The notes under the pieces are model-generated. The model had not been told where the DNA came from and did no database searches. It saw only the letters and a list, made by a program, of their open reading frames with translations. Shown one piece after another: positions 6,772 through 62,700 of a DNA stretch of 64,000 bases. The translations under genes and the position numbers were made by a program. How positions within the stretch are numbered: the stretch's first letter is position 1; the number at the start of each line of letters is the position of its first letter. The stretch is taken from the IMG/VR virus record IMGVR_UViG_3300027858_000005, positions 1-64,000 of that record; one strand, given 5' to 3'. Origin of the DNA: a virus.

Positions 6772-6944
6772 TCACGTACAAACAAATCAACGGCAAGAAA
6801 TTTCATTTGCAAGTCAAGCTTGACGGTCGGGTCGTTGGTTCAATTCGACCCGTGCTGGACGGCTTTAAATATTTTCCGAAAGGTTCCTGCAACGGCGGTG
6901 AACGGTTCGCGACAATTGACGAAGTCAAAGCCAGTTTGCTATAA
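6768..6944 (+). CDS. hypothetical protein, 58 aa
   Basis: A small basic beta-rich protein (MITYKQINGKKFHLQVKLDGRVVGSIRPV, then a Cys and a helix with TIDEVKASLL). It is coupled to the previous gene by a 4-bp overlap. Its last 20 bases overlap the convergent glycosyltransferase gene. It is the last gene of the rightward cluster. Confidence 0.65.
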   Translation: MITYKQINGKKFHLQVKLDGRVVGSIRPVLDGFKYFPKGSCNGGERFATIDEVKASLL

Positions 6945-7644
6945 CCCACGGTTCCCGGCACTGATCAGGTTTCGGGTCACCATGAAAAACCACGACCCGC
7001 GAAAGCGGGTTTTGTTTTTTGCCCCGGCAATCGTACTTGTAAGAATCGATAAGATCGCGCGGCCAGTTTGCGACGTTGTCACGAAGCACGCGCCAAATCC
7101 AACATTGATCGCCGTGCAACGCGTTCATGATTTTATCCGAATCGTTTGCGTACTGGGTAAATATCGGGTTCAATCTTTCATCGTTCGCTGACCACAACAT
7201 GACCGAAGAATTGTGCGCGCAGTGTCCCCGGTTCGGGCCGAAGTTGTAAATCATGATTAACGGTTCGGGTGCCCATTGGTGCGCAAGATAATCAAGGTCA
7301 CCAGTGATCACGACGTCAAGATCGAAATACAAAACCCGGTCGCCGTCTTCAAACAAGCCCGGGTAAAACAACCAGACTTTTTGCCACCAGCCTTCGCGCT
7401 TTTTGTCGAGCGTCGGCAGCGGGACAGTTTCGACGCCGTCAATTTCCCGGTCAGACAAACAAACGAATCTTATCGGAACTGACAAGTTTCTTTCAACTGC
7501 TGACTTCAGTTTGTGAACGTATTCGACTTTGTATTTCGTTCCATAGAAAACGCAAGTGACAACCAGCGGGCGGTTCCCGGGCGGGTGATCGCGATAGATC
7601 GACCAGCGCGTCGGCGTAATCGGCGGGGTTTTTAAATCGATCAT
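6925..7644 (-). CDS. glycosyltransferase, GT-A type
   Basis: The protein has 239 aa from ATG 7644, which overlaps the FkbM gene stop by 4 bp. It shows a Rossmann-like N-terminus (PLVVTCVFYGTKYKVEY), the DXD-type motif YFDLDVVITGDLD near residue 105 and a GHCAHNSSVMLW acceptor region. It would transfer a sugar from a nucleotide-sugar donor in a metal-dependent way. The neighbours (FkbM methyltransferase, DUF115-like proteins) suggest a glycan pathway. The acceptor could be a host surface glycan, a virion glycan or modified DNA; the sequence does not say which. Confidence 0.75.
   Translation of the reverse strand: MIDLKTPPITPTRWSIYRDHPPGNRPLVVTCVFYGTKYKVEYVHKLKSAVERNLSVPIRFVCLSDREIDGVETVPLPTLDKKREGWWQKVWLFYPGLFEDGDRVLYFDLDVVITGDLDYLAHQWAPEPLIMIYNFGPNRGHCAHNSSVMLWSANDERLNPIFTQYANDSDKIMNALHGDQCWIWRVLRDNVANWPRDLIDSYKYDCRGKKQNPLSRVVVFHGDPKPDQCREPWVIANWL
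6995..7020 (+). terminator. rho-independent terminator, rightward, inside the glycosyltransferase gene
   Basis: ACCCGC, a GAAA loop and GCGGGT are followed by a T-rich run of 11 bases. It ends the rightward cluster 50 bp after its last gene, yet lies wholly within the coding sequence of the convergent leftward glycosyltransferase. Confidence 0.8.
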
Positions 7645-8363
7645 TGTGGCGGTGCCAAAATTACATCGCGGTGAACTTTCTGCACGACTTGATACTTGTG
7701 AATTCTTTCGAGCCATTCGGTCGCTTCGCCTGCTTGGTGATTGACCTGTTTGCCCGGTCCCATTTGCGGCAACGGCTTTTCTTCGATCATGATGAAAGGC
7801 TGATAACGTTCGATAGTATCGTACGCCCCGCGCAGTGCTTCCACTTCGCGCCCTTCGATGTCAAGGCAGATCAGATCGCACGCGACCATCTTCAAATCAT
7901 CCAGAACGATTCTCGGCACGACTTCAGAGTAACCAGCCGAAAATTCTGGCGCGTCAATCGTAAAGAAGGCACCAGCGTTTCCCCGTTCTGATGGATGTAG
8001 TGCTGTCGTAACGTTACCGGGCTTTTCACCCAGTGCCGCGTTCAGCGGCATTATTTTTTCTGGCAAGTGCGACACGTTCGCCGCCAAACACCAGTAATTT
8101 AATTTGTCTGGTTCATACGTGAACACTAAATCGAAATGCTGCGCCAACGCAACAGGCCAAACGCCCATAGCGCCGCCAGCCTGAACCGCGATTTGCATGT
8201 CGCGCCCCGCCTTGGTCATCAACAACAACGTCGCGTTCAGATCGTTGACCCAGTCGTTGACCGCTTTCAACTTCGTATCTTGCTTCGGCCATTTCCAGCG
8301 GCGACCATCGAATTCGATGTACTCGCAAAAATCGTCGTAGTCAGTTGGTGTGTTAGTAGTCAT
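7641..8363 (-). CDS. FkbM-family SAM-dependent methyltransferase
   Basis: The protein has 240 aa from ATG 8363. It has the class I methyltransferase core (VQAGGAMGVWPVALAQHFDLVFTYEPD: a motif I variant, then an acidic residue after strand 2) and the typical FkbM ending of an acidic LICLDIEGREVEALRGA motif followed by PFIMIEEK. FkbM enzymes methylate sugar or other hydroxyl groups. The glycine-rich loop starts QAGG rather than the usual DxGxxxG, a small departure. It sits in a coupled run of glycan-type genes. Confidence 0.75.
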   Translation of the reverse strand: MTTNTPTDYDDFCEYIEFDGRRWKWPKQDTKLKAVNDWVNDLNATLLLMTKAGRDMQIAVQAGGAMGVWPVALAQHFDLVFTYEPDKLNYWCLAANVSHLPEKIMPLNAALGEKPGNVTTALHPSERGNAGAFFTIDAPEFSAGYSEVVPRIVLDDLKMVACDLICLDIEGREVEALRGAYDTIERYQPFIMIEEKPLPQMGPGKQVNHQAGEATEWLERIHKYQVVQKVHRDVILAPPQ

Positions 8364-8988
8364 CAATTTTCCCTTTCTTGAAGTGGTTCAGTGCTGATGT
8401 TTCGCACAAGTTTATCACAGTTATTCCAAGGTCGCTTTCATCAATCGTTTCGAACTGTTTGATCAGCCCGGTGAATTCACCGTTCGGGCCGGTTCGTGGG
8501 TTGTGATACAAACTGCGCGGGTACTCGCCGAAGTAATGCCGCTTTTCCCCGGGCGGGTATGCCATGTCGTACCCCAATAAATAGAATTCTCGAATTCCTG
8601 CATGATACGCGATTCCAAGTATCTGATAGCCGCTTGCGTGTCCGAAGTGGATAAACGCGGGGTCTTTGGACAGACTGTCACCCCAACGACCTTCGATATA
8701 GTTAAGGTTTTTGATTTCACCTGACCGCCAGATATAAGTTGGTTTGTGCCACGTCCACTTTTCAAAAGGCGCGTCGCGAATGCGCGGGTCTTGTGCGTAT
8801 TCGTCCCACCATTCCGGGTTGCACGCCATGAAGTAGTCAAGCGACGGCACGCGCTGATAAACGTTGTTGATACCGAACAAAGGAACGCCCAGCCGTTGCC
8901 AGTTAAGCGCCCATTCAATTTGATCATCTGACAAAGACGGGCCAGTCCCGATAATAATTCCTTTAGTCTGTGGCGTTCGCGATTGCAT
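8353..8988 (-). CDS. DUF115 / MptE-like Rossmann protein, copy 1
   Basis: The protein has 211 aa from ATG 8988. The N-terminus IIIGTGPSLSDDQIEWA is the glycine-rich loop typical of DUF115/MptE-like proteins. Later it has FIHFGHASGYQILGIAYHAGIREFYLLGYDM, which closely matches the next gene. Family members act in sugar or pterin pyrophosphate transfer and in flagellin glycan pathways. In phages they often lie beside glycosyltransferases. It overlaps both neighbours and is probably a tandem duplicate of the gene to its right. Confidence 0.65.
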   Translation of the reverse strand: MQSRTPQTKGIIIGTGPSLSDDQIEWALNWQRLGVPLFGINNVYQRVPSLDYFMACNPEWWDEYAQDPRIRDAPFEKWTWHKPTYIWRSGEIKNLNYIEGRWGDSLSKDPAFIHFGHASGYQILGIAYHAGIREFYLLGYDMAYPPGEKRHYFGEYPRSLYHNPRTGPNGEFTGLIKQFETIDESDLGITVINLCETSALNHFKKGKIDDY

Positions 8989-9693
8989 CTTCAAGACTCA
9001 TTTGCGGGAAACATTTTAACCGGGTCGGCGACGTTGCGTTGATGACCTGCATACCCGGGGGAACTTTGATCTTGTCAAACTGCGCCGCGAAAGAATGATA
9101 CGACGTGTTGCGTGAAAGCCCTTTCGGGTGATCGCCGAAGAAATGCAGCTTCGGTTTTTTGTTGTCACCAACAGCCATCATGTTGAACCCAACTAGCACC
9201 ATATATCTGATTCCCAGCAGGTAGGCGATGTTCGTGATTTGGTATCCTGAATTTGAACCGTAATGAATTTTCGATTGGTCGCGGGACCATCCGGCCCCGC
9301 CGTTCCCAGCAATCCGATACAAGTCAGGGTAAGTTTTTTTCGTCCCGCTTTCAGTACACCAGAACCCATTACGACTTCCGTTCCATTCCTTGACTTTATC
9401 GTAATGAATTTTCCACCAGCGGTTGTCGCACGCATAGTGGAAATCCAGATAAGGGCAGATTCTATAGCAATCCGAGATTCCGATATATTTCCACCCGCTT
9501 TCCGAATAAATTCGATCAATAACTTCTTGTGTGAGGCTTGGACCCGTAGCCATGACAAACGCTTTTTCTCCTTCAAAGATTCTGGGGATGGGGCTGCATC
9601 CAGCGTCGATTTTTGTGTTTCTATGCCCTTTAATCGGGCGCGCTCGCGCCCTACCGGGGGGAAGTGACGTGGTTTTTTTGGGGTGTCTTCCAT
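8963..9693 (-). CDS. DUF115 / MptE-like Rossmann protein, copy 2, probable -1 frameshift near its start
   Basis: The conserved part (FEGEKAFVMATGPSLTQEVIDRIY to SLEDAIANATD) is in one frame, with a GYQITNIAYLLGIRYMVLVGF segment matching copy 1. That frame has no usable NTG start between the polymerase gene and the internal ATG at 9553, which would cut off the first beta strand. An ATG at 9693, four bases after the polymerase stop, is one frame away. A -1 slip at A AAA AAA (about 9673-9680) would give MEDTPKK followed by the conserved frame. The alternatives are an assembly error in the A7 or C6 run, or a true start at 9553. Confidence 0.55.
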
Positions 9694-9696
9694 TTT

Positions 9697-11694
9697 CTAT
9701 TTGGCTTCGCCCCAGTTGTCCCCGTGATTGCTGTCGCACGTTAACGGCAGGTTTAGCAGGACGCAGTTTTCCATTATCCGTTTCGCTTCGTCGTGGGCTT
9801 GGTGTGCTTCCGTCGTTTTGGGCACCGACCAGTTTAGTTCGTCGTGTACGGTGAGAAGCGGAGCCCCTAATGTGTCGATTATACCAGCCGTTTCCCATAT
9901 ATCCACCATTGCAATTTTCATAATGTCCGCCGCTGAACCTTGCAGTAAAGCGTTCAGGGCTTTATGTGTGTTAGCGACTTCGTATTCGTCGCCGTACTTT
10001 TCCCGGGCGACGGTTTCATTGAACGCGCCTTCTGCTTTCGCTATTTTACGATTGACTGATTGGTAACGATCCCAGCGCCGACGCCGCCCCTGATATGTTC
10101 GAATCCATTTCCGGTTTTTCGCGCGCCTGTCGCATTCGTCATACAGCGATTTGATGAATGGTAACCTACTATGGTATTGCAAGAAAAGCGGTTTTACATC
10201 TTCCAGCGAACGTCCCAGATTTGCCGCCATCGTGGGTTCACCCATACCGTACACCAAGCCGAAGTTAATGTTCTTTGCGGGCTTGCGGTCAATCCCTGTC
10301 AGTTCTGAAACGAATTTGTGAAAGTCTGTCGTTGGATCGTCGCGAAACTGTCGGCAAATAACGTCGGCGGCGCTTCCCGGGTCGCGCTTCCCGTATTGCT
10401 CGAACGCATAATGCACCAGCATTCGAAATTCGATTTGTGACCAATCGTCCGAATACCAGTCTTCACCTTCGTCGGGTATGAACAGCGACCGGATACGCGG
10501 CCCGAGTTCTTCATCGCGTGCCGGGATGTTCTGAAGGTTAGGATTACTGGAACTGAAGCGCCCTGATACCGCCCCGTAGGCGTCGTTTTTAAGTTGGTGA
10601 AACTGGGTGTGAATGCGCCCGTTGATCTCATTGCCCAGTATAGCGCCCTTGATGAACGTTCCTGAATGCTTGTCCAGCTTGCGCAGTTGGTGAACGTCGC
10701 GCAATATTTGTTCTGGGTGTTCTTCCAGAAAATCAGCCGTGAATGAAGGCTTTTTCGTGGGCGTCAGATTGAAGCTGACAGCGTGCTTGTGACACCATGC
10801 CGCAATCGATTCAGCGCCCCACACGTCGATTCCAGCGGCGGTAACCTTCTTTCTGATGCCGTCGGCCACGGTCATCAATTCGTCGTCAAGGGCGTGCGCT
10901 GCGGGCTTGTCAACGGCAACACCGCGTCGGCGCATGGCTAGCATCATCGGCAGCAACCGCGTTTCAATGTCCCAAACACGCCCTAGTTCTTGATCTGCGA
11001 TGATTTCTCGTTGCTTAGCTAAGATGTCCCGGGGCTGTTCAACGTCGCCCATCGCGTATTCTGCGACCACTTCCGGCGGTGCCCGGTATATGTTCTTCGC
11101 CTGACCCGCCCGGGTAGGCTTTCCACCATACGCAGCGGCTAGCCACGCGTAAAGCTGTTCCTCGCGCTTGCCTTCACCCAGATACTTTCGCGCACAACCG
11201 CCCAGTGAGAACGTGAAGGCGTTTTCGTCAATCAGGGGTTCAGCAATCAGGATATCGTAATACGGTCCCGGGACTTCAACCCCGGCTTCCCACAAGTAAT
11301 CCAGATCGTACAACAAGTTCGCGCCGATCTTCGCAACGCCCGGGCGGCACAGTTCATGCTTTGCCCAGTTAAGAACATTCTTCCGGGGCAGGTTGTATCC
11401 GCTGGGGTCGTATTTGTCGGGGTGGTCGTGTTGCATAGGGAAATACCAAGAACGGTCTTCAGTAGCGACAGAAATTCCGACCATGAACCCATCGCGTCGA
11501 ACGCCCGGGCCTTTTTCTTTCAAGTCGGGGTCGTAGGTTTCGACATCGATGACCAGTTCTTTTGCGCTATCAAGACGTGGGAATTCTGTTGGCTTCCATA
11601 TCACGTTGTCCGGTATCTTCGGCATGACGCGCGGACCTTTGCGCTTCCCTGCTGGCGCGTCCCACAATAGCCCGGAATTTTTCGGGTAGCTCAT
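9697..11694 (-). CDS. polA: family A DNA polymerase with 3'-5' exonuclease
   Basis: The protein has 665 aa. The exonuclease motifs are VIDVETYD (Asp50, Glu52), an IGANLLYDLDYLW segment and YAMGDVEQPRDI. The polymerase motifs are SDDWSQIEFRML (motif A), RKPAKNINFGLVYGM (motif B) and LLTVHDEL (motif C). All catalytic acidic residues are present, so a proofreading replicative polymerase is expected. The motif B position equivalent to E. coli Pol I residue 762 is Phe. There is no 5'-3' exonuclease domain. It overlaps the DUF4326 gene by 4 bp. Confidence 0.95.
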   Translation of the reverse strand: MSYPKNSGLLWDAPAGKRKGPRVMPKIPDNVIWKPTEFPRLDSAKELVIDVETYDPDLKEKGPGVRRDGFMVGISVATEDRSWYFPMQHDHPDKYDPSGYNLPRKNVLNWAKHELCRPGVAKIGANLLYDLDYLWEAGVEVPGPYYDILIAEPLIDENAFTFSLGGCARKYLGEGKREEQLYAWLAAAYGGKPTRAGQAKNIYRAPPEVVAEYAMGDVEQPRDILAKQREIIADQELGRVWDIETRLLPMMLAMRRRGVAVDKPAAHALDDELMTVADGIRKKVTAAGIDVWGAESIAAWCHKHAVSFNLTPTKKPSFTADFLEEHPEQILRDVHQLRKLDKHSGTFIKGAILGNEINGRIHTQFHQLKNDAYGAVSGRFSSSNPNLQNIPARDEELGPRIRSLFIPDEGEDWYSDDWSQIEFRMLVHYAFEQYGKRDPGSAADVICRQFRDDPTTDFHKFVSELTGIDRKPAKNINFGLVYGMGEPTMAANLGRSLEDVKPLFLQYHSRLPFIKSLYDECDRRAKNRKWIRTYQGRRRRWDRYQSVNRKIAKAEGAFNETVAREKYGDEYEVANTHKALNALLQGSAADIMKIAMVDIWETAGIIDTLGAPLLTVHDELNWSVPKTTEAHQAHDEAKRIMENCVLLNLPLTCDSNHGDNWGEAK

Positions 11695-17170: not shown

Positions 17171-17194
17171 TTTCATTTATCCTTTCTAAGTTAA

Positions 17195-17210
17195 GCCCCG
17201 TTGCCGGGGC
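17195..17210 (-). other. GC-rich RNA hairpin between early genes
   Basis: GCCCCG and CGGGGC flank TTGC, between two leftward early genes. No U-tract follows. Confidence 0.45.
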
Positions 17211-17217
17211 GGTTAAG

Positions 17218-17556: not shown

Positions 17557-19098
17557 TCAACCCGTTTTTGGAACCGGGAAACCGCAACGCGGCGACAGCT
17601 TGACGAATAACCGCTTCTTTGCCCGGGTCGCGGCGACATAAAAGATTCGCGCTTCGTCGTCGCGGGTGTAACCGATCTTGTAATAATGATGCGGGCGTCG
17701 CCCCATGCTATTCGAAAAGTATACGTTATCAGCTTCGCCGCCTTTGACGCCGTGTATCGTATGAATTTCAATTTTCGGTTTGTCCAGTAACGCAGATAAA
17801 CCAAAGCGGTCTTTCACTGCGGAATAATAGTGGCTGTCGTTCTCGCCTACCAGAAGGGCTTCGTTCCAGATAGCATCTGTTTTCTTGAACCCGTAGTCGC
17901 GAACCAGTGTCGTCATTCTAATTCTGTCGGCGGGCTCTCGTTGCATTAATCTTTCGCGCGTCGTCTTCTCGATCTGGTTGTCTTGCATACTATCAACAAT
18001 TGATATAATCGAAGAAACGGGGACAGACTCGCCGTTCTGTAATTTCGTCCAAGCGTTAGCAAGGCGCAAGTGTTGTTGTTTAACTGAATTGCGTTCGTTG
18101 CAAACAAACGGGTAACCGTGTCGGCGTAGCCATGCCGCAAGGTCGTCTTGTTGGCTTCGCGTTCTTGTCAGAAGATACCAGCTTTCACCGTTATCAAGTG
18201 GGCAGTCTTCGAGCCCGCCCACGAAATTGAATTCGCCGTCTTCGTCGCGCGGCGACCATTCTTTTTCGTATCGGTCGTCGATCATCGAAACGATGCTGAT
18301 TGCAAATTCCCAAACCGCCCGGGGTAGCCGGTACGATTCCGCCAGAACCGTTCGGTGTGCGTCCATGTGTCGAAACGTGTGCAGGTCAGCGCCCGCCCAC
18401 GAATAAATTGCTTGATCATCGTCGCCAGCAATCCAGACTGTTTGCACGTCTTTAAACATTTGCTTCGCGAACTTCCATTGCAACGGCGACAGGTCTTGCG
18501 CTTCATCGATGATTGCGAAGTCGACGTCGAGCGGATCAAGACTGCACCCCATTTCAAGCATGTCATGAAAATCAACAAGACCGTTTAATTTTTTGTAGGT
18601 TTCCAGCGCAACGCCCATCTTGACGAATTCGTTCAAGCCGTCGGTCATGCCGCCGAAGTAGAACCGGCGCAGTGTCATTGACGCGGCTATTTTTTCGAAG
18701 TGGTCGCCGTAGCCCCGGCATAGATTCCGGGCAAGCCCCAAATGAAACCCGGTCATATTGCGCGCTAAAACTGACGTATCCATTTCGGCGGGCATAATAT
18801 CTTTCCCCAGATATTCGCCCAGTTCGCGCCAGTGGTCCGGCTTCATTACGTCGTTGTGCTTTAATCGGTTCCGATGAAAAGCCGTGCTGTGCATTGTTCG
18901 AAAATGGGGGAAGTCGTCTTTCGGTAAATCGAACCGGGCGGCGGCTCGGTCGCGTGCTTCGTTCGCTGCCTTGCGTGTGAAACTCACGTACGCAATTCGG
19001 TCTGGGGTGACTCCTTTGTCAAGCAACTGTTCAACGACGTCGATGCAGGTAGAAGTTTTACCCGTTCCCGGCGGTCCTAGTATCATTTCTTTCCGCAT
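17557..19098 (-). CDS. UvrD/PcrA-like superfamily 1 helicase
   Basis: The protein has 513 aa with all main SF1A motifs: GPPGTGKTST (Walker A, residues 8-17), FTRKAANEARDRA (Ia), IIDEAQDLSPLQW (Walker B/II), WIAGDDDQAIYSWAGAD (III, Q-D-D-Q-A-I-Y type), IHTIHGVKGGEADNVYF (V) and FYVAATRAKKRLFV (VI). It probably unwinds DNA 3'-5' in replication or repair. The start shares TGATG with the primase stop. At 513 aa it is shorter than cellular UvrD (about 720), as is usual in phages. Confidence 0.9.
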   Translation of the reverse strand: MRKEMILGPPGTGKTSTCIDVVEQLLDKGVTPDRIAYVSFTRKAANEARDRAAARFDLPKDDFPHFRTMHSTAFHRNRLKHNDVMKPDHWRELGEYLGKDIMPAEMDTSVLARNMTGFHLGLARNLCRGYGDHFEKIAASMTLRRFYFGGMTDGLNEFVKMGVALETYKKLNGLVDFHDMLEMGCSLDPLDVDFAIIDEAQDLSPLQWKFAKQMFKDVQTVWIAGDDDQAIYSWAGADLHTFRHMDAHRTVLAESYRLPRAVWEFAISIVSMIDDRYEKEWSPRDEDGEFNFVGGLEDCPLDNGESWYLLTRTRSQQDDLAAWLRRHGYPFVCNERNSVKQQHLRLANAWTKLQNGESVPVSSIISIVDSMQDNQIEKTTRERLMQREPADRIRMTTLVRDYGFKKTDAIWNEALLVGENDSHYYSAVKDRFGLSALLDKPKIEIHTIHGVKGGEADNVYFSNSMGRRPHHYYKIGYTRDDEARIFYVAATRAKKRLFVKLSPRCGFPVPKTG

Positions 19099-20666
19099 CA
19101 GAAATTTGTTTCGGGTGGTATGACTGGGTCTAGTTCCTGCGTCGAATCAACTCGAAGTGTTCCCGCGTCCGCTTCCCAATAAGTCAGCCCGATAGTATCG
19201 GAACCGTTTCGAATGGTTGTCCGGTCACGTCGCATGTCAAAGGCTTCTAAGTGCTTTCCTATTACTTTCGGGTTTGGGGTCACACGCGTTTTTTCACGAA
19301 TGAAGTCAACGAGTGATTCCAACCTGAAACGGTACACCCCTTCGACTTTCAAAGCAAGACCGTCGAACAACTGGTTGTTGTTTTTCGCGTGCGACATCAT
19401 TTTCAGGTAGTCTTTCAAATGCTCCAACGTCTGCGACTGGGGTGACAACTCGAATGGTATTTCAATTGTCTGGCAACCGTCCAGCGCATTTTGAATCACG
19501 TTTCGCCAGCGGGCTTGCGGAATTATCTGCGGGTAAAAGTTAACCTTTTCAATACACTGCGCGCCGAACTTCTTCTGCTCCATTAAACCGCTTACGTCTT
19601 CGTAGCGCAGAACATGACCGCGCACCGTGATTTCCCATTCTGGCTTTTCGTCGATTACCTTGCCGGTCGGCGTCATGTAAACCAGTTTTTTCAAATCCTG
19701 TAAATCGATGTCCATTTCGAATCGTTCTTCGATAGCCCCGCCGACGCCGTGCTTTCGTCGCATACAAACAGCCCGGTTGCAAACCTGCGTCAATGGCGCT
19801 TGCGTGCAAAGGTAACCGTAATCGCGCCGCCCTAGCGATTTGTAAATCGTGTCGTTCAACTCCCGGGTCGACAGCGGCGGGTTCACATACTTGATATTGA
19901 ATTCGTCAACGTACTCTTGCCAGTCGTCTTCGCCGTATTTGATCTTCGCATAAACGCCCATCTGCAACAGAACCGTATTGCGCCCGCCCTCGCTGATGCC
20001 GTCCCGGGCGAAGTGCTGGCAGCACGGCGGACCGTCCGAGAATGGGTATTCAATGGTCGGCACTTTTAAATCGCGGAATTGTTTCCTGCTCAAACTACTG
20101 CGTTTTGCTAATTCAAGGAATTCATCAAGGTCAAGCTGATCGCCGTCACGGCTGAACGCATAGCGAACGGTAAAGTCGGCTTGAAAATACGGCATGTTCA
20201 ACCAGTTGCCATATTGATCTTCTTCCAGTTTTATTTGCTTCGGGAAAATTTCTGTACCATCGAAGCCCATCGCTTGCGCAAACGCCTTCAGCTTTTTGAC
20301 GACTTCCGACGCTTTGATTTTCTCGGTAAAGAAAACGTACACGTGAGCCCCGCCAGATTTTGACCGGACAACGATAAACGGCAAGCCGTGTTCTTTGATG
20401 AACTGATTCATCGTGGCGCAAACGTTCGCGCCATACGAATCGATATCGAGCGCCGCCCACATGACCGTTCCGTCGTCGCAAATTGGAATGATGCCCAGAC
20501 TTCGAATGCCGTCAAGATGTTGCTGCCACATTTCAAGCGTCGGCGGGGTTGCAATGGTCTTCGCTTCGCCGGATACTTTTTCGCCTTCGATGGTTTCATC
20601 GATTGCGTATGTGCCGTGCGCCCGGTCGAGCCCGACGAATAACTTTTGTAACTTTTTTGCTGACAT
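19098..20666 (-). CDS. archaeo-eukaryotic-type primase (TOTE-like)
   Basis: The protein has 522 aa. The N-terminal 200 residues carry AEP motifs: VMWAALDIDSYG (metal-binding Asp-x-Asp), FIVVRSKSGGAHVYVFF (the Ser-Gly-Gly-x-His nucleotide site) and GTEIFPKQIKLEEDQYGNWLNMPYF. A helical PriCT-like region follows (SDGPPCCQHFARDGISEGGRNTVLLQMGVYAK), with four Cys near 285-305 that could bind zinc. It would prime the phage replication fork together with the helicase just downstream. The end is not assigned. Confidence 0.8.
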   Translation of the reverse strand: MSAKKLQKLFVGLDRAHGTYAIDETIEGEKVSGEAKTIATPPTLEMWQQHLDGIRSLGIIPICDDGTVMWAALDIDSYGANVCATMNQFIKEHGLPFIVVRSKSGGAHVYVFFTEKIKASEVVKKLKAFAQAMGFDGTEIFPKQIKLEEDQYGNWLNMPYFQADFTVRYAFSRDGDQLDLDEFLELAKRSSLSRKQFRDLKVPTIEYPFSDGPPCCQHFARDGISEGGRNTVLLQMGVYAKIKYGEDDWQEYVDEFNIKYVNPPLSTRELNDTIYKSLGRRDYGYLCTQAPLTQVCNRAVCMRRKHGVGGAIEERFEMDIDLQDLKKLVYMTPTGKVIDEKPEWEITVRGHVLRYEDVSGLMEQKKFGAQCIEKVNFYPQIIPQARWRNVIQNALDGCQTIEIPFELSPQSQTLEHLKDYLKMMSHAKNNNQLFDGLALKVEGVYRFRLESLVDFIREKTRVTPNPKVIGKHLEAFDMRRDRTTIRNGSDTIGLTYWEADAGTLRVDSTQELDPVIPPETNF

Positions 20667-20759: not shown

Positions 20760-21599
20760 CTAGAACGTCGCCGGTTCTGAAGGTTGTGGATTTTCAGATT
20801 CACCCGTTGGCGTTTTTGCTTTTTCACTGGTGGCTTCGCCGCCGGGTTCTTGATCGACGCTTTTCACTGCCCCTTGTTGAAACGCCTGATAAAACTTTAT
20901 TGCTGCGTTTAACTGGTTCTGGTCAGTCACAAGCGACGGCGCTTTGATGTCCCAAATACGCCACGTGTTGTTGTCTTTCTGCTGGGCTTCAGACCCGACG
21001 GAATAGATCAACTGGCAGGTCGCCCGCAAACCGCGCGCGGTGACTTGCTTGTTCATGTCCGAAAACCATCGACGCGAACGCTTGACTTGCGTGCGTTCCA
21101 TGTTGATGACGCCCGGGTAAAAAATACCGTTACCACGAACAACGACCACGTAATGAATCCGGGTGTCGTTCAGTTCATGCCCATTCGGAAGAATGTCACG
21201 GTTCTTATCGTTAAGCGTTGTCTGACGCATCAGTTCTTCGCCTTCGACCGGGTCGTATTCCGCGATGAAACCTTGTCGACCATCGGAATCAGTTTCGTTA
21301 CGGGGAACCCATTCGACAAAGACGCGTTTGTACCCAACAGGTATAAACTGAATCTTTTCTTTTTCCGGGTCGATTACTTCGCCGCCGATGGTGTCGTATA
21401 ACATCCCGGCTTTTGTACCTTCGATGAAACTTTCGCTGTCAGGGTCAGCTTGTGGCGAACCCTTTTGCAATAGCCGCATGAACGGGGTGGCAAACGAAGA
21501 CGAATCAGCGTTTTCTAAACCCGCGCCATCTGGTAGGACGTCATCGGGAATGGTAAGCGCGGTTGCGCCTGATGTTTCTAGGTCTTTTTTGTTACTCAT
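20760..21599 (-). CDS. conserved phage replication-region protein, 279 aa
   Basis: A soluble protein with a core of FMRLLQKGSPQADPDSESFIEGTKAGMLYD, IQFIPVGYKRVFVEWVPR and MERTQVKRSRRWFSDM. It ends in a Pro/Ser/Glu-rich tail (ESENPQPSEPATF). Similar proteins occur beside polymerase and primase genes in other podo- and siphophages without a settled function. The flexible acidic tail and position would fit a single-strand DNA-binding or recombination mediator, but this is inference only. Confidence 0.65.
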   Translation of the reverse strand: MSNKKDLETSGATALTIPDDVLPDGAGLENADSSSFATPFMRLLQKGSPQADPDSESFIEGTKAGMLYDTIGGEVIDPEKEKIQFIPVGYKRVFVEWVPRNETDSDGRQGFIAEYDPVEGEELMRQTTLNDKNRDILPNGHELNDTRIHYVVVVRGNGIFYPGVINMERTQVKRSRRWFSDMNKQVTARGLRATCQLIYSVGSEAQQKDNNTWRIWDIKAPSLVTDQNQLNAAIKFYQAFQQGAVKSVDQEPGGEATSEKAKTPTGESENPQPSEPATF

Positions 21600-21668: not shown

Positions 21669-22214
21669 TTACTTCTTTACCTTCGACACTCGCTTTTCGT
21701 AATAGCTGATGCTTTCTGGTACTACGTTGCTGTTCGCAAGTTGTTCGTTAACCCACGCGCGCAATGTTCCGGGGTGGATAGACGTTTTCGCCTCGAAGGC
21801 GATTTCGTTCGTATCCAATAATGATTTTAATATTTCCGCTTTGCCGTCTTCACCGGGTCCGAACGTCGTCGTGATCGCGTTGCGAATAATAGCGCCGTGA
21901 TTGTGATCTTTCAACCAGCGATGTGCTTCGGCCCGATTTTTTTCACTGATGTTTGCAAAAACTGATTCTTTGACATCGATTTCGGTGCCGTCGGTCAAGC
22001 GAAAAGTTTCAAACCCGATTGCAAGCATGGCGTCAGGCAATAGATTTTCGTTTATTGTTTGTAAATTCTGCTTTGCAAGACGCAGGGAATTTTCAAGGTC
22101 TGCGACGGTACTTTCAGCGGCAAGCTGACGATTCGCAAGTGCTTCGACAGTTTTCATTTGTTCGTCGGATGGGGTCCGCACTTCTTCGAGTGCAGTTAAG
22201 TCTAGTTCTGGCAT
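21669..22214 (-). CDS. conserved phage protein with N-terminal coiled coil, 181 aa
   Basis: An N-terminal coiled coil (ANRQLAAESTVADLENSLRLAKQNLQTINENLLP) is followed by an alpha/beta region with EAHRWLKDHNHGAIIRNAITTTFG and a C-terminal PGTLRAWVNEQL. I recognise this as a widespread phage replication-module protein of unknown function. It has a GGAGAAA site upstream. It is likely co-transcribed with the SNF2-like helicase. Confidence 0.7.
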   Translation of the reverse strand: MPELDLTALEEVRTPSDEQMKTVEALANRQLAAESTVADLENSLRLAKQNLQTINENLLPDAMLAIGFETFRLTDGTEIDVKESVFANISEKNRAEAHRWLKDHNHGAIIRNAITTTFGPGEDGKAEILKSLLDTNEIAFEAKTSIHPGTLRAWVNEQLANSNVVPESISYYEKRVSKVKK

Positions 22215-22647: not shown

Positions 22648-24279
22648 TTACAACTTCGCGGGGCAAGGTGCAAATAAATCTTGCACAATTCCAGCGGCAA
22701 CGACGCCGGTGTGCGCCTTCTCGCTTTCCATAATCCGCAAACTGTCTTGTGTGATCATGTCCGCGAGACTCATTTTCTTTGCTAGCGCCATAACAATTTT
22801 AGTGTCAACCGTTCCCCGGCATTCCAGATCAACGTAGTTGACAGGGTGATGTTGTCCGATGCGGTGTGCCCGGTCTTCTGATTGCAACCGCGCTTCAAGA
22901 CTGAAATCGTTGCTGTAATAAATCACCGTTGTTGCAGCGGTCAAGGTCAACCCGTAGCCGCCGGAATGTTGTTGACCGACAAAGAAGCGCGACTGTTCTT
23001 CTTCGGGCACCGGGTCCACGCGAACGACTTGGCGTGTTTCCGGGTCGATGATGGGGCGCTCACCTTGAAACAATGTCTGCGCTTCTTCCCGGTCAGCATC
23101 TTTTACGCCGCCGTGATAACTGACAACACTTGTCGGCCCATATTCTTTTCGTAGGGCGTTTTCTATCGCTTCGATTTCAGGGCGAAACCTCGACCAGATA
23201 ATAACCTTGCCTTCGGTTTCTTCGATGACGTCCAGCATCGATTGAATACGTGGGTTGCTGGTGCCGATGGGTTGCGCAACACCGTATTCTTCTTCGGGCA
23301 CAAAGCCGCCGATGATTTGTTGTAAACGCAAAAGCCGGGTCAGTACATTCGACACCGGCACGTTCTGCCCATCCATTTCGATGACTGAATCGTGAATCAG
23401 TTTGTTGTAAACTTTGCGCTGATCTTCGCTTAATTCGACGTAGCGAATCTGATAAATCTTGTCGGGTAGGTCAAGGCATTCTTCTTTCGTTATGCGAGAA
23501 CTATGCGGGGCTAGTAGTGCAATCAGTTTGTCGAGATTTTTATATTCGACTAGTGCTTCGAATTCTTGTTTTTCGTCTTTGCCGGGGATGTAACGATATT
23601 CAGTTTGCCATTCCGCAAAATACTTCTTGAACGAAACGAAATTGTCGAAGCCAATTATCGACGGGTCGAGAAATCGGAACTGTGAATAAATATCGAACGG
23701 GCTGTTCGTGACGGGTGTTCCTGTCAGTATCCGACGGCAGACCGCGTGTCGTCCAAGATGGTACATTGCCCGGGTTCGTTTCGCGCCGGGTGTTTTGATC
23801 TTGCTCGATTCGTCGACCGCCATCATGACTTTCAACGAATTCAAAATCGGGCGCAGGAACTTCGCCGGTCGGCAAGCTTGGGAATTCGTGAAGCCTTCGA
23901 GATTGATCGCGATGACGCGCAAGCCTTCGAAGCCGGGTTCGAGAACATGATCGACGGCGCGCTTTTCCGCGACCCTCATTGTCGCTGACCACGTAGCGCC
24001 CCGGTAGTTTGTCCATTCTGGCATGTGCGCAGGTAGTTCACGACTGATCCAGTTGCGGTGAACGCCCTTCGGCGCGACGATGACCAGACAGTTGACCCGC
24101 CCGTGGTAGAAGTTGTACGCGGCGGTATCGATCACGATTTTCGATTTGCCGGTTCCCATCCCCATCAACAGCGCAAAACTTAATGTATCACGGGAACGCA
24201 GGAAGATTTCACGTTGATGATCGTATGGCTTGGTTTTCCAGACATAATCTTCCGCTTTCACGGGTATCGGTTCTGACAT
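22648..24279 (-). CDS. SNF2-like superfamily 2 helicase
   Basis: The protein has 543 aa. Motifs are MGMGTGKSKIVID (Walker A, about residues 39-51), VIVAPKGVHRNW (Ia), MMAVDESSKIKTPG (II, DE-type), ILTGTPVTNSPFDIYSQFRFL (III), VIIWSRFRPEIEAI (IV), VGQQHSGGYGLTLTAATTVIY (V) and RAHRIGQHHPVNYVDL (VI). This is the SNF2/Rad54 pattern found in many phage replication modules. It probably translocates on double-stranded DNA in replication restart or recombination. It is the first gene after control cassette A. Confidence 0.9.
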   Translation of the reverse strand: MSEPIPVKAEDYVWKTKPYDHQREIFLRSRDTLSFALLMGMGTGKSKIVIDTAAYNFYHGRVNCLVIVAPKGVHRNWISRELPAHMPEWTNYRGATWSATMRVAEKRAVDHVLEPGFEGLRVIAINLEGFTNSQACRPAKFLRPILNSLKVMMAVDESSKIKTPGAKRTRAMYHLGRHAVCRRILTGTPVTNSPFDIYSQFRFLDPSIIGFDNFVSFKKYFAEWQTEYRYIPGKDEKQEFEALVEYKNLDKLIALLAPHSSRITKEECLDLPDKIYQIRYVELSEDQRKVYNKLIHDSVIEMDGQNVPVSNVLTRLLRLQQIIGGFVPEEEYGVAQPIGTSNPRIQSMLDVIEETEGKVIIWSRFRPEIEAIENALRKEYGPTSVVSYHGGVKDADREEAQTLFQGERPIIDPETRQVVRVDPVPEEEQSRFFVGQQHSGGYGLTLTAATTVIYYSNDFSLEARLQSEDRAHRIGQHHPVNYVDLECRGTVDTKIVMALAKKMSLADMITQDSLRIMESEKAHTGVVAAGIVQDLFAPCPAKL

Positions 24280-24337
24280 GTTTTTCCCTTTCTGATTTTC
24301 GCAATTGTATCACGGGGTCAGGATAAATTGCGACGCC

Positions 24338-24567
24338 CTAATAAGTAAACGGATTTTCAAACTTTCAGACAGGGTGTTAAGATTATAACACGTTTCGCAC
24401 GCGCGCGCCATTAGAGAATTACACTTTTCAAATACCTGATAACTTGAAAAACGGCTAACTGACAACAAAGCTGTAAAACTATACCCTGTTATAAAACAGC
24501 AAATAATCTTCACACACGTTTGAAATCTATGTATATTGTTTAACCTTATAGGAGATTACAATTTTCG
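24338..24567 (-). promoter_or_regulatory. control cassette A, upstream of the helicase operon
   Basis: There is no gene between 24280 and 24595. This stretch shares five blocks, in the same order and orientation, with 61285-61651 upstream of the terminase genes. The blocks include a CCTATAAGG/CCTATAGGG element with GTAATC before it, a TTTTATAACAGGGTATA block and a TTTGAAAATCCGTTTACTTAT block. Inside it, at 24382-24387 on the minus strand, is a TATAAT with TGT extension but no recognisable -35. It probably contains the promoter of the leftward replication operon. Confidence 0.6.
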
Positions 24568-24595
24568 GGGTCTTAATGGGTGTTCAAAAGCGGGG

Positions 24596-25748: not shown

Positions 25749-25812
25749 TGCGGCTTCTCCTTTATTCAGCAATGCAGAATTGTAACTTCTTTTTGCATAA
25801 CTGCATAGCCAC

Positions 25813-25834
25813 AAAAAAGCCCCGTTGCCGGGGC
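25813..25834 (-). terminator. rho-independent terminator
   Basis: GCCCCG, TTGC and CGGGGC are followed leftward by six T. It ends the 93-aa early gene before the dNMP kinase gene. Confidence 0.8.
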
Positions 25835-25840
25835 TGGTTG

Positions 25841-32748: not shown

Positions 32749-34631
32749 GATTGCACGTCGCCGATGAAAACGGCTTCAACTGTAGAATCGAGAACGTCGC
32801 TTTCTGCGTCTTGCCAGTCGTGGTTGATTGTGACGTCGTCAGTTGCAAGTCGCGCAAGAATCATCAGATCAACTTTGTCGACTTCAGCAACAGTCGCCGC
32901 GAATGATGTCGCGGGTTCGATGTTAACGCGTTCTGTTGTATCGTCAATCTTCGTGACGCTCAAAATTCTGTGGTAACTGATGCTGCCGTCGGTTTTCTTT
33001 AACCTGAGTCCGGCCCACGGTCGTTGACCGCTGACGAAATCTGACATGCCCCAGTTGTCAACGTCAAAGTTAAACGCACCGCTACCGATGTTTGCGTTTA
33101 CGTTGAAGTCGTGGCGGTGTGTCGGAATCCACGCGTTGCGAAGTTTTCCGCGCAGGTAGTACAGCAAGGAACGAAGCTGCCATTCAAACTGAACACTTTC
33201 GACAATCCAGTTGAACGGGGTTGAACGTCTGGCAGCTAGTTCTTGCGTTAACTGCTGGAACTTGCCTATACCGTAATCGATACGTTGCAGTTTCAATTCC
33301 CAGCCTTCAGCCAAGGTGCCGCCGTCGATGTTGTTTGCATCGTCAATGATCAACGTGTCGTTGCCGTCGAAGTCGGTCAGTTCTGGATACCACGCGTTGT
33401 CGATGCCGGGTATTGTCGGGTCGTTTTCAAGCAGGTCGAACTTCATACTGTACCGCGAAGTTTCGCCCGCTTGCGGGGTGCGCTGTTTCGCGGGGGACGC
33501 CAGAATAGAAGGCACAACCGGAACCACCGTGGCAAGGCTTCCGTCGTAGGCATTCTGCACACCTGTCGCAAAAGTGATTGTGTCCTGCGTGCTTTCTGGT
33601 GAAGCGACAGACATGATTACGTCGGATATCTGCAAGCTGTCCTGCGTGATTGTGCCGTCTGGGTTTTCCTGAAAGACCATCGCCAGCCCGCCGATTCTGA
33701 AATCAGCGTTGTCGAGCCCACCCGGGCGAACAAATACGACGGTGTCGTTTACCGCAACATCAGCGATTAATGATCGTTCAAACCACCAAAGCGGGACACC
33801 GAAAACCCGGGAAGTCCAATCAACGAGCAGGTTACGAATCTTGTTCATGTTGGCGAGTGTCGTCGATGAAATTTCATACGATACGCTTTGTCGTGGATTC
33901 GGTCGCAGGGCGTGGCGTTGTTCGCTGCCGTCGGCACTTTTGATTATATCGGTTGACCACGCAAGAACTTCTTTTGAAGCACCTTGCGGGGTGTACGGAA
34001 ATATAATGATCCGCGTACCAGTTAACGACAGAACAAGCGTCCCGCCTGTTGTAATGAAATCAATCGTGCCGTTGATGTTTGGCGGACCGTCCGTCGTTAC
34101 GGTGACGACGTAAACCTTGTCGGCGTTCGGTGCAAGGTTCGCTGGTGTGCCCGCTCCCGTGATCGTTATTCCCGCCCCGGCATTATTGTCAATACTGTTA
34201 AGCGTCTGATTATCTTTTCGGAATGTATTTTGAATAGTTGCGTTGAAAACAGTGTCACTGACCACGTTACCCAGTGCAACAACCCCGGGATTTAACAAAA
34301 CTTTTTCAAAGTAATCGAATCCTACCCCTTTCATGTCCGCCGGACCAGTGCCTAAATTTTTCCACCGCCCGGTTCCGTTCGCGCCGCGTGCGCTTCGTTG
34401 CCTCCACCCAACAATATTATCTGTTGGGGTGACCAAAATATGATAACCGCGTGCGGGAATGTCAGCGGAAAAACCGAAAGTTACGGCGTCGGGAAACCGC
34501 GTCGGTTGAACGTAAACACCACGGGAAAGTTCGTGGTTTACAGAATCGTTTAAGTCTTGGTAATTCCTATGAAACGGAACTTCTGGACCCGCTTGATTTC
34601 TATAAAGTAATGCTCCGCTTCTCGCAGCCAT
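32745..34631 (-). CDS. distal tail / tail-tip structural protein, 628 aa
   Basis: A large beta-rich protein with FHRNYQDLNDSVNHELSRGVYVQPTRFPDAVTFGF near the start and FNWIVESVQFEWQLRSLLYYLRGKLRNAWIPTHRHDF towards the end. The order (after the tape measure and two paralogues, before DUF2163) places it in the tail tip. It is coupled to DUF2163 by 4 bp. I do not recognise an enzymatic motif. Confidence 0.65.
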   Translation of the reverse strand: MAARSGALLYRNQAGPEVPFHRNYQDLNDSVNHELSRGVYVQPTRFPDAVTFGFSADIPARGYHILVTPTDNIVGWRQRSARGANGTGRWKNLGTGPADMKGVGFDYFEKVLLNPGVVALGNVVSDTVFNATIQNTFRKDNQTLNSIDNNAGAGITITGAGTPANLAPNADKVYVVTVTTDGPPNINGTIDFITTGGTLVLSLTGTRIIIFPYTPQGASKEVLAWSTDIIKSADGSEQRHALRPNPRQSVSYEISSTTLANMNKIRNLLVDWTSRVFGVPLWWFERSLIADVAVNDTVVFVRPGGLDNADFRIGGLAMVFQENPDGTITQDSLQISDVIMSVASPESTQDTITFATGVQNAYDGSLATVVPVVPSILASPAKQRTPQAGETSRYSMKFDLLENDPTIPGIDNAWYPELTDFDGNDTLIIDDANNIDGGTLAEGWELKLQRIDYGIGKFQQLTQELAARRSTPFNWIVESVQFEWQLRSLLYYLRGKLRNAWIPTHRHDFNVNANIGSGAFNFDVDNWGMSDFVSGQRPWAGLRLKKTDGSISYHRILSVTKIDDTTERVNIEPATSFAATVAEVDKVDLMILARLATDDVTINHDWQDAESDVLDSTVEAVFIGDVQS

Positions 34632-59224: not shown

Positions 59225-60663
59225 ATCTCGACCTGCTGGACAACGGCACCCCGAGAAAACACGGGGTAAGCTTTAGCGATATAATAGCCGACCGAGTCAG
59301 TTAAATGCGTTAACTTCGGGTCTGCCTTCTTGTCTAATTCGCCGCTGCCTCCCGCGAGAAGGCGAACACCTTCAAAATCTTTCACGGTTTGCGGGGCAGT
59401 ATTCGGGTCAACCATCATCTGAATTTCGCCGTCGCCAGTCTTCAGCCGTGTGTTTACCGCGTTGATTCTAGCACGTTCCGTCGGATTACTGCTAGGGACT
59501 TGCAAATGCACCCTTTTATTCCCGAAATGTTTGTACAACGCTTTTTCGATTAAGTCCCAATCAGACCCTTCAGTCTGGGCACTGCCCCGGCTTCCCCCGG
59601 TAGCATCGCCGTATAAATAAACATGCCCTTTGTGATCGCCCCAATCTTCGATAACCTTCCTGCATACTGCCGGGGTGTTGCTGTTGCGCGGTATATGAAC
59701 TTCGCCGATTATCGCGGTCCCGGTCGACGCTGGGCGCGTCACATTAACGAACATTTCCCGCCCTTTTACCATGACCGGGGCAGCGGTTTCAATCACCCGG
59801 GGGAATTTCAATTCTTGCACAATGACACAAACACCCGGGTCAACGTTGAAATCGAAGCACAATATCAGGTCTGATGCTGGGTTGTAATGCTCTCGAAGAT
59901 TGGTGCAATGCAGATGTCGTTCGAATGGGTAATACGCCTGCCCTTCGAAATTAACAAAACTTGCTTCGTATTCCTGCCGGAACGTAAGCGGGTCGAGTGA
60001 TCTACGGGCTGACTCGATTTCCGCTTCGGGCAGTATGTCAGAACTGAACCATGTAAACGCGTCCCAGTCCCCGCCGTTGTCAACATGCAGCGCACCCAGC
60101 GCGTCGTTATAGGTGTCGTAGTAGTGATTCCGCCCTTCTGGTACGCCGATCAACCAACACCAGCCCGTTCGATCTGACAAAGACGGGCGAACATTTTCGC
60201 CCCATGCGTTCGGCTTCATGTTGGCGTATTCGTCCAAAACGCCGCCGTCCCACGGGGAACCTTCTATTCGCTGGGGCTTGTCCATTCCGACAACTGACAG
60301 CATCGCCCCGGTTTTGTACCAGATGGTTAATTCCGTTTCACTGGTGCGCCAGACGAATTGCCGTGGCGACATGGCTTTCAGGTCATCCCAGTATATGCGC
60401 TTTGCTTGGTCGCGGGTCGGTGCCGCTGCAAAGTAGTTCGGATTATCAAAACTGCTGCGCCCTGATAAACATTCTTCGACTAGTTTACGCTTTGCCCGTT
60501 CGGTCTTACCAGAACGCCGCCCTGCTGGCACAACCTTGAAGCGCGCCATACTGAACCATAATCGAGATTGTTCGGCGTGGTACTTTAAAGCGTTCCAGCG
60601 TTTAGTTAATAGTCCGCTTTTGTCCGGCAGCTTCGACGCCGTCGCCCGGTTCCTGTAACCCAT
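59221..60663 (-). CDS. terL: terminase large subunit
   Basis: The protein has 480 aa. The ATPase has Walker A VVPAGRRSGKTERA (about 45-58) and Walker B SPWDGGVLDEYANM. The nuclease has LCFDFNVDPG, VYLYGDATGGSRGS and a final Asp in LTHLTDSVGYY. It packages DNA through the portal and cuts it. It overlaps the small subunit by 62 bp. Confidence 0.93.
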   Translation of the reverse strand: MGYRNRATASKLPDKSGLLTKRWNALKYHAEQSRLWFSMARFKVVPAGRRSGKTERAKRKLVEECLSGRSSFDNPNYFAAAPTRDQAKRIYWDDLKAMSPRQFVWRTSETELTIWYKTGAMLSVVGMDKPQRIEGSPWDGGVLDEYANMKPNAWGENVRPSLSDRTGWCWLIGVPEGRNHYYDTYNDALGALHVDNGGDWDAFTWFSSDILPEAEIESARRSLDPLTFRQEYEASFVNFEGQAYYPFERHLHCTNLREHYNPASDLILCFDFNVDPGVCVIVQELKFPRVIETAAPVMVKGREMFVNVTRPASTGTAIIGEVHIPRNSNTPAVCRKVIEDWGDHKGHVYLYGDATGGSRGSAQTEGSDWDLIEKALYKHFGNKRVHLQVPSSNPTERARINAVNTRLKTGDGEIQMMVDPNTAPQTVKDFEGVRLLAGGSGELDKKADPKLTHLTDSVGYYIAKAYPVFSRGAVVQQVEI

Positions 60664-61264
60664 TGACTGAATTCATTTCCTGTAATACCCGTTGAATCGA
60701 TGCCGCTGTTTCTTCCGGCGGTGTGGTGTCGTTGTCACCCTTGCCGAGAATTCCCATCATGACGGCTAGGTCGTTGTTTGCTTTGTGCTGGTCGTGCAAT
60801 TCAAGATCGACGTTCCGTTCGCCCCGGGCGTTATGCGTGATCTTTATTTTTTTGATGCACTGGCGTTGTTCCTTGGTCAGTTGGTCAAGCGGAACAAGTT
60901 GATAATCGCCGATGAAATAATCACCGACGTCGGAGTCAGCCCAGAGTGACCAGCGAGCAATGACCGATTCTTCGTTCTCGCCAGATACACGCAACAGGCG
61001 ACGCAGTTCAATTTCGACAACCCGGCGAACAGCTTCAAGCTGGAAAAGGTACGGACCGGAAGTCGGCGACATGCCCGCCGCTTCGGCGGCTTTCTTGGCG
61101 TCACCCAGCCGCGCCATGTGATAACAAAATTCACGCCTTCCCGTAGTCCAGTTAAAATCTGTATTTATTTCATCGGGTATCGACAGGTGCAGGTCGATTT
61201 CTTCTTCAGACATATAACGCTTCTCGCGGTTTGGTTTCTCACCAGTATTCGCAGTTTGTTCCAT
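60602..61264 (-). CDS. terS: terminase small subunit
   Basis: The protein has 220 aa. The region GRREFCYHMARLGDAKKAAEAAGMSPTSGPYLFQLEAVRRVVEIEL is the helix-turn-helix DNA-binding part of Terminase_2-type small subunits. The C-terminus holds ASIQRVLQEM. It would recognise pac or cos DNA, plausibly the repeat-bearing region just upstream (61285-61666). An ATG at 61213 is an alternative start with a better ribosome-binding site. Confidence 0.8.
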   Translation of the reverse strand: MEQTANTGEKPNREKRYMSEEEIDLHLSIPDEINTDFNWTTGRREFCYHMARLGDAKKAAEAAGMSPTSGPYLFQLEAVRRVVEIELRRLLRVSGENEESVIARWSLWADSDVGDYFIGDYQLVPLDQLTKEQRQCIKKIKITHNARGERNVDLELHDQHKANNDLAVMMGILGKGDNDTTPPEETAASIQRVLQEMNSVNGLQEPGDGVEAAGQKRTIN

Positions 61265-61284
61265 TCGGGCGAAAATTGCAATTT

Positions 61285-61651
61285 CCTATAAGTAAACGGA
61301 ATTTCAAACTATCTAAGCAGGTATACCCAAAAAAAAAGTTTTCGCGTGCACGTGGCATGTATGTATTTTTACAATATTTTGAGAACAAAACGAGAAAATG
61401 AGAACAAAACGAGAAAATGATATAGGTTTAATCTATACTAAACACACTTCATATAGAGAACAAAACGAGAACCTGTCAGATTATGAACACCCATTAAGAG
61501 CAGAATTATAACAACAAAACTTCAAATTCCTTTTTGATTTTCTGCGTTCACCGTACTGTAAACAATATACCCTGTTATAAAATCACGAATAATATTCACA
61601 CTCTGAGGTTTACATAAATAACGTTTACCCTATAGGAGATTACAATTTTCG
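61285..61651 (-). promoter_or_regulatory. control cassette B, upstream of the terminase/virion operon
   Basis: The 466 bases between the terminase gene and the 61731 gene hold no plausible coding frame. The stretch shares five ordered blocks with cassette A (24338-24567): CGAAAATTGTAATCTCCTAT-A/G-GG, GTGTGAA-ATTATT...TTTTATAACAGGGTATA, a weak TATAAT, a GCACGCGAAAAC-like block and TTTGAAATTCCGTTTACTTAT. It is longer because of repeat insertions. It probably contains the promoter of the virion operon; packaging sites could also lie here. Confidence 0.6.
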
Positions 61652-61666
61652 AGAACAAAACGAGAA
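61381..61666. repeat. four copies of a 16-bp direct repeat
   Basis: GAGAACAAAACGAGAA occurs at 61381, 61400, 61456 and 61651, all in the same orientation. A fifth copy is at 57512 inside a coding sequence. The first two are 19 bp apart. The place just upstream of the terminase small subunit fits a terminase-, regulator- or origin-binding site. Confidence 0.8.
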
Positions 61667-61678
61667 CTTATCGCCCAC

Positions 61679-61701
61679 AAAAAAGCCCCGATTTCCGGGG
61701 C
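61679..61701 (-). terminator. rho-independent terminator
   Basis: GCCCCG, ATTT and CGGGGC are followed leftward by six T. It ends the 79-aa early gene before control cassette B. Confidence 0.8.
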
Positions 61702-61730
61702 AATTCTGTTCTATTTCAACCTGCGATCTG

Positions 61731-62623: not shown

Positions 62624-62671
62624 GCTTTTTTGTAATATTTATTACAATTAATTTCGTTTTATTACACCCAT

Positions 62672-62693
62672 AAAAAAGCCCCGTTTCCGGGGC
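62672..62693 (-). terminator. rho-independent terminator
   Basis: GCCCCG, TTTC and GGGGC are followed leftward by six T. It ends the 88-aa gene. Confidence 0.8.
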
Positions 62694-62700
62694 TGGTTAG

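What the first reader, a model, noticed from the sequence alone, without database searches (positions are those of the whole stretch)
24338..24567. Duplicated control cassette: five ordered blocks shared with 61285-61651
Upstream of the replication operon (helicase) and of the virion operon (terminase) lie two non-coding stretches sharing, in the same order and orientation: a CGAAAATTGTAATCTCCTAT(A/G)GG element, a TTTTATAACAGGGTATA block, a weak TATAAT region, a GCG-rich GCGAAA block and TTTGAAA(A/T)TCCGTTTACTTAT. In addition, TCTTAATGGGTGTTC at 24570 occurs as its reverse complement at 61484. The -35/-10 family above is absent here, so this looks like a distinct phage-specific switch for middle or late transcription.
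Basis: partly seen in the sequence, partly recalled or inferred. Interest (0 to 1): 0.65.

Follow-up and report, generated by a model that had tools for sequence, protein, structure and literature searches.

The report
Twin intergenic control cassettes in phages
This phage carries two copies of the same non-coding control region, one at the start of its DNA-copying genes and one at the start of its particle-building genes; distant relatives keep the same paired arrangement with different letters, which suggests a conserved, apparently undescribed pair of replication-origin-like switches.

Summary
Cassette A (24338-24567) and cassette B (61270-61651) share ordered blocks far beyond chance: 78% identity over 97 nt, E about 1e-14, plus a second 42-nt block. 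Both lie just upstream of minus-strand operons, helicase (A) and terminase small subunit (B).

The blocks have no DNA-level match in relatives, but the arrangement recurs. Paired non-coding cassettes occur upstream of helicase and terminase in Yuavirus, Vojvodinavirus and Abidjanvirus and in five IMG/VR phages, and in another paired layout in Pamexvirus. Each lineage has its own repeats, and the core is AT-rich. In six phage genomes the two least stable stretches of the sequence examined are the two cassettes. In Abidjanvirus the copies are inverted. Both YuA cassettes contain promoters recorded as active.

My best reading is paired origin-like regions (iterons plus melting element, as in SPP1 oriL/oriR) that also carry the operon promoters (0.5). 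Nothing here proves origin or promoter function in this phage.

The parts
24338..24567 (-). Cassette A: non-coding, directly upstream of the replication operon (helicase 22648-24279, -)
61270..61651 (-). Cassette B: non-coding, directly upstream of terminase small subunit 60602-61264 (-) and the virion operon
24545..24567 (-). E1 end element of cassette A
61629..61651 (-). E1 end element of cassette B (outer end)
61270..61292 (+). Third, inverted E1 copy closing cassette B next to the terminase start codon; makes B an inverted repeat
   Evidence: score 39; 0 of 1000 shuffles
24322..24346 (+). Degenerate inverted E1 copy closing cassette A
   Evidence: A_left vs B_left score 46; 0 of 1000 shuffles
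24480..24496 (-). E2 block TTTTATAACAGGGTATA in A
61566..61582 (-). E2 block in B
24393..24409 (-). GCG block in A; occupies the place where a -35 hexamer would lie for the TATAAT within 24375-24394
   Evidence: sequence inspection
61340..61359 (-). GCG block in B
   Evidence: sequence inspection
24341..24361 (-). E3 block in A
61288..61308 (-). E3 block in B
24375..24394 (-). -10-like half of the genome's host-type promoter family, without a -35
   Evidence: (D7)
61381..61396 (-). Direct repeat TTCTCGTTTTGTTCTC, copy 1 (B only)
61400..61415 (-). Direct repeat copy 2
61456..61471 (-). Direct repeat copy 3
61651..61666 (-). Direct repeat copy 4
24571..24585 (+). TCTTAATGGGTGTTC, just outside cassette A
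61485..61499 (-). TCTTAATGGGTGTTC inside cassette B, opposite strand
22648..24279 (-). SNF2-type helicase (phrog_62), first gene after cassette A
60602..61264 (-). Terminase small subunit (PF03592), first gene after cassette B

Best explanation
A and B are a pair of origin-like control cassettes. SHOWN: two copies of a non-coding element built as an imperfect inverted repeat stand at the heads of the helicase operon and the terminase operon; related phages have such pairs with lineage-specific repeats around an AT-rich core. INFERRED: a phage or host initiator binds the repeats and melts the core, starting theta replication at one or both copies; the second copy may serve as a late origin or fork-stalling site, as proposed for SPP1 oriR. 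INFERRED: the promoters of the two long operons lie in the same cassettes, which would couple replication with expression of replication and packaging genes.
For: Paired cassettes at helicase and terminase operon heads: LKO4/YuA/SN1 (57 nt, 84-86%), FP1 (140 nt, 83%, E 2e-33), Ab18 (310 nt, 86%, E 6e-97, inverted), PaMx11 (370 nt, 76%, inverted), G014, G016, G017, G018 (E 1e-7 to 2e-11 against the whole contig) and G012 by its repeat. Pamexvirus phiH1 has a pair at terminase and at the major-capsid gap. 15 of 16 records with an Ab18-type cassette hold two places. The two least stable 80-bp windows are the two cassettes in LKO4, FP1, Ab18, SN1, phiH1 and G016, and the homologous gaps in Donnerlittchen. 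Several repeats occur nowhere else in the sequence examined: CTATAGGGG in G012 (3+3, 0 elsewhere), AACCTAAGT in Ab18 (3+1, 0), TAAGTTAAG in LKO4 (2+2, 0), AATCTAAAC in phiH1 (2+2, 0). SPP1 has two origins of similar layout, direct repeats plus AT-rich element (PMC6316719).
Against: In the window itself A and B rank only 8th and 6th in instability, and no 9-mer occurs 4 or more times in the two together. Fourfold-site GC skew shows no sign change at the cassettes in the window, LKO4, FP1 or Ab18. No initiator gene was recognised. In all tested helicase/terminase pairs except Abidjanvirus the copies have the same orientation relative to the downstream operon, which also fits a promoter. Six of 11 long IMG/VR contigs gave no pair by blast or motif, one of them (G019) cut at the contig end.
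Confidence: 0.5

Rival explanations
1. The cassettes are purely transcriptional: the same phage-controlled promoter/operator region placed before the two long operons, so one phage regulator controls both.
For: Position exactly at the two operon heads. YuA's record lists promoters of medium activity (1000 MU) at 489-568 and 33014-33160, at homologous places of both cassettes. Same orientation relative to the operon in the window, LKO4, FP1, G014, G016, G017, G018. In cassette A a -10 without -35 next to a conserved GCG block looks like an activator-dependent promoter.
Against: Copies inverted in Abidjanvirus with all genes one way. Replication and virion operons are normally expressed at different times (general knowledge). 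The cores are the least stable DNA of several genomes, beyond other promoters there. No consensus promoter in B.
Confidence: 0.35
2. Cassette B, with its four 16-bp direct repeats beside the terminase small subunit gene, is the packaging start (pac) or the terminase's own operator, and A is a decoy or secondary site.
For: Direct repeats TTCTCGTTTTGTTCTC x4 in B, none in A; neighbouring gene is terminase small subunit.
Against: The shared blocks are in A too, 37 kb away at the replication operon; pairing is conserved in phages with other terminase families, for example G012 with phrog_9.
Confidence: 0.07
3. The blocks are the termini of a small mobile inverted-repeat element, or a neutral recent duplication.
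For: Inverted repeat ends with little else shared.
Against: Same two operon heads in many lineages with unrelated sequences; no target duplication seen by eye; E1-type ends only in these two gaps.
Confidence: 0.04
4. E1 is a promoter of a phage single-subunit RNA polymerase (AATTGTAATCTCCTATAGGG resembles the layout of T3/K11 promoters).
For: AATT...CTATAGGG layout over 20 nt, best in the B copy at 61629-61651 (the resemblance is from memory, a lead only).
Against: No PF00940 match in the genome record (whose control genomes also gave none); in B one E1 copy points away from the operon; related cassettes keep only CTATAGG-type ends.
Confidence: 0.04

Closest known systems
Bacillus phage SPP1 oriL and oriR (PMC6316719)
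   Same: Two origins in one virulent siphovirus genome with similar organisation, direct repeats beside an AT-rich melting element; one in the replication genes, one in an intergenic stretch of the late region.
   Different: SPP1 oriL lies inside its initiator gene and the repeats are bound by gp38; here both copies are intergenic at operon heads, built as inverted repeats, and no gp38-like initiator was recognised.
YuA promoter fragments (GenBank AM749441, positions 489-568 and 33014-33160)
   Same: Same two genomic places (before helicase and before terminase small subunit); the two fragments overlap a block shared by both cassettes.
   Different: Recorded only as two separate promoters with weak -35/-10; the pairing, the shared repeats and the AT-rich core are not noted in the record. 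Sequence unrelated to the window's blocks.
Paired non-coding cassettes of Abidjanvirus Ab18/PaMx11 and Vojvodinavirus FP1 (found here)
   Same: Two copies at helicase and terminase operon heads, repeats plus AT-rich core.
   Different: Other repeat sequences; in Abidjanvirus the copies are inverted relative to each other.

Membership tests
SPP1-type paired replication origins | Two copies of similar organisation in one genome | tested here: met
SPP1-type paired replication origins | Direct repeats (initiator boxes) in both copies | tested here: inconclusive
   Met in several relatives; in the window the shared element is the E1 inverted repeat and the direct repeats are in B only
SPP1-type paired replication origins | AT-rich unwinding element | tested here: inconclusive
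   Ranks 1 and 2 of the sequence examined in six relatives, ranks 6 and 8 in the window
SPP1-type paired replication origins | Phage initiator binds the repeats; replication starts there | not testable with these tools
   Needs binding and replication assays
The window's own host-type sigma-70 promoter family | TTGACA and TATAAT at 16-18 nt in both cassettes | tested here: not met
   A keeps only a -10-like part, B has none
Sigma-54 promoters as recorded for YuA late genes | GG and GC elements 10 nt apart in the GCG block of both cassettes | tested here: not met
   By inspection: GG-GC spacing is 9 in A, GG absent in the GCG block of B
Single-subunit RNA polymerase promoters | Phage encodes such a polymerase | tested here: inconclusive
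   No PF00940 match, but the control genomes gave none either
Paired operon-head cassettes of Yuavirus-like phages | Shared non-coding sequence before helicase and before terminase small subunit | tested here: met

The most novel reading that the evidence does not exclude
A broad group of siphovirus-like phages carries two co-evolving replication origins, one at the replication operon and one at the terminase operon, that double as operon promoters. Each lineage changes the repeat sequence in both copies together, so origin, initiator and timing of packaging-gene expression form one linked module.
Probability: 0.35. Interest if true: 0.75.

Novelty: new variant of a known kind. Interest (0 to 1): 0.52.

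Why it matters
YuA-like phages are studied against Pseudomonas, yet the recent family study I could read does not mention promoters, intergenic regions or a replication origin, and I found no description of the paired cassette in the papers searched. If the pair is a pair of origins, it gives a concrete place and a cultured model (YuA, Bordetella FP1) to test how these phages replicate and switch to packaging. It also offers a sequence-independent way to find candidate origins in unclassified phages: look for the shared non-coding element at the helicase and terminase operon heads.

Tried and rejected
Exact-block scans of IMG/VR gave only chance hits, for example L015 inside a 2193-aa frame. 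A scan of 80 helicase loci for E1, E2, E3 gave only weak, scattered matches. Blast of cassette B against phages gave nothing useful. A close relative by terminase small subunit was not found. Rfam: no match. GC skew: inconclusive. Search for a phage RNA polymerase: no match, uninformative control. The two proteins encoded after the helicase were modelled to look for an initiator: the 279-aa one gave only weak OB-fold (RPA/SSB-like) matches, none below E 0.001; the 181-aa one is a coiled coil with no match. MW202621 (closest TerL), DSL-LC04 and NP1 showed no paired cassette by blast; DSL has a single inverted-repeat cassette with CCTATAG ends. Six of 11 long IMG/VR contigs showed no pair.

Full report
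WHAT IS THERE. The window is almost all of a 64,011-base virus record from IMG/VR. Nearly all genes run on the minus strand. Cassette A lies between the end of the lysis genes and the helicase gene 22648-24279. Cassette B lies between 61731 and the terminase small subunit gene 60602-61264 (PF03592), which starts the virion operon (TerL, portal). Read in the direction of transcription, both show E1, E2, a GCG block and E3. Blast gives 78% over 97 nt (E 1e-14) and 83% over 42 nt (E 5e-6). The local score is 82 against a shuffle maximum of 35, and no other window of the genome exceeds 43.

ANATOMY BEYOND THE FINDING. A third E1 copy lies inverted at 61270-61292, five bases from the terminase start codon. 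Aligning the four half-cassettes shows that B_right and B_left, A_right and B_left, and A_left and B_left match beyond 1000 shuffles. So each cassette is an imperfect inverted repeat whose half runs E1, then GTAAAC; in A the inverted copy is badly decayed. B holds an insert with exact 16-bp repeats TTCTCGTTTTGTTCTC (four copies in and at the edge of B) that A lacks. Consensus host promoters are no more common than chance in A and absent in B. A keeps a -10-like TTATAAT of the genome's promoter family with the GCG block where a -35 would be (inspection).

RELATIVES. It succeeds for the arrangement. The window shares helicase, two following genes, DNA polymerase and virion genes with YuA-like phages. 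In LKO4, YuA and Sphaerotilus SN1 the gap before helicase and the gap before terminase small subunit share 57 nt at 84-86% plus further collinear blocks. In Bordetella FP1 they share 140 nt at 83%. In Ab18 they share 310 nt at 86% and in PaMx11 370 nt at 76%, in both cases inverted. In phiH1 the partner of the terminase gap is the gap before the major capsid gene. Of 11 long IMG/VR contigs chosen by helicase, G014, G016, G017 and G018 show the pair by blast (E about 1e-7 or better against the whole contig) and G012 by motif. In the genomes tested, 9 of 319 other long frames had a second match of their upstream region at E 1e-8, against 6 of 16 helicases (genomes partly related and partly preselected, so this is a rough control).

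G012 deserves mention. In 40 kb the words CCTATAG and CTATAGG occur only at the ends of two intergenic regions, one directly before helicase, the other before a leftward operon with TerS and TerL of a different family, phrog_9; about 0.3 of each word is expected. DSL-LC04 has one such cassette before its terminase small subunit operon, with CCTATAG at both ends of a 45-bp inverted repeat. The window's E1 contains the same core, CTCCTATAGG. This suggests, but does not prove, common descent of the end element.

ORIGIN-LIKE FEATURES. The two least stable 80-bp windows of the sequence examined are the two cassettes in LKO4, FP1, Ab18, SN1, phiH1 and G016, and the homologous gaps in Donnerlittchen; for several of these only 50 kb of 56-62 kb were loaded. 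In the window they rank 6th and 8th, behind ordinary intergenic promoters. Several repeats in the relatives' cassettes are found nowhere else in the sequence examined. Paired origins with repeats and an AT-rich element are known in SPP1 (PMC6316719). Fourfold-site skew does not change sign at the cassettes, which is no help to the origin reading.

PROMOTER-LIKE FEATURES. The YuA record lists promoters with medium activity at 489-568 and 33014-33160, at homologous places in both cassettes. The record gives the activities; I could not read the original paper. Orientation relative to the downstream operon is the same in all tested helicase/terminase pairs except Abidjanvirus.

JUDGEMENT. Both functions may coexist. 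A shared promoter alone does not explain the inverted copies of Abidjanvirus or the extreme instability of the cores. An origin alone does not explain the promoter records or the usual co-orientation. I therefore favour origin-like cassettes that also hold the operon promoters (0.5), with a purely transcriptional switch second (0.35). Steps shown: duplication, inverted-repeat build, positions, conservation of the paired arrangement. Steps inferred: binding of an initiator, melting, replication start, promoter use in this phage.

Noticed in passing
57512-57527 (-): Fifth exact copy of the cassette-B repeat TTCTCGTTTTGTTCTC, at the start of gene 57051-57554, far from the cassette.
   Followed up: no
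3.8-6.6, 13.9-17.6, 26.1-28.1, 53.1-53.5, 62.0-63.1 kb: Repeated module of host-type promoter plus CTTAGAAAGGA ribosome-binding stretch on both strands, heading many small early genes.
   Followed up: no
17185-17215, 25809-25839, 61675-61705, 62668-62698: Repeated GCCCCG...CGGGGC terminator-like hairpins.
   Followed up: no
L028 20554-20773 (phage DSL-LC04): Single inverted-repeat cassette with CCTATAG ends before the terminase small subunit operon.
   Followed up: partly
L132 7337-7600 and L133 8316-8543 (IMGVR_UViG_3300048589_000566): Two cassettes bounded by CTATAGGGG that are the only places with this word in 40 kb.
   Followed up: yes
20760-21599 and 21669-22214 (-): Conserved pair (Pam3 gp34-like, gp33-like) next to the helicase in most of 80 related IMG/VR loci, often divergent from it; the first gives weak OB-fold matches.
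   Followed up: partly
6925-9898 (-): Run of sugar-transferase-like genes (glycosyltransferase, sialyltransferase-like, methyltransferase).
   Followed up: no
19098-20666 (-): Primase matching the archaeo-eukaryotic primase domain of TOTE conflict systems.
   Followed up: no
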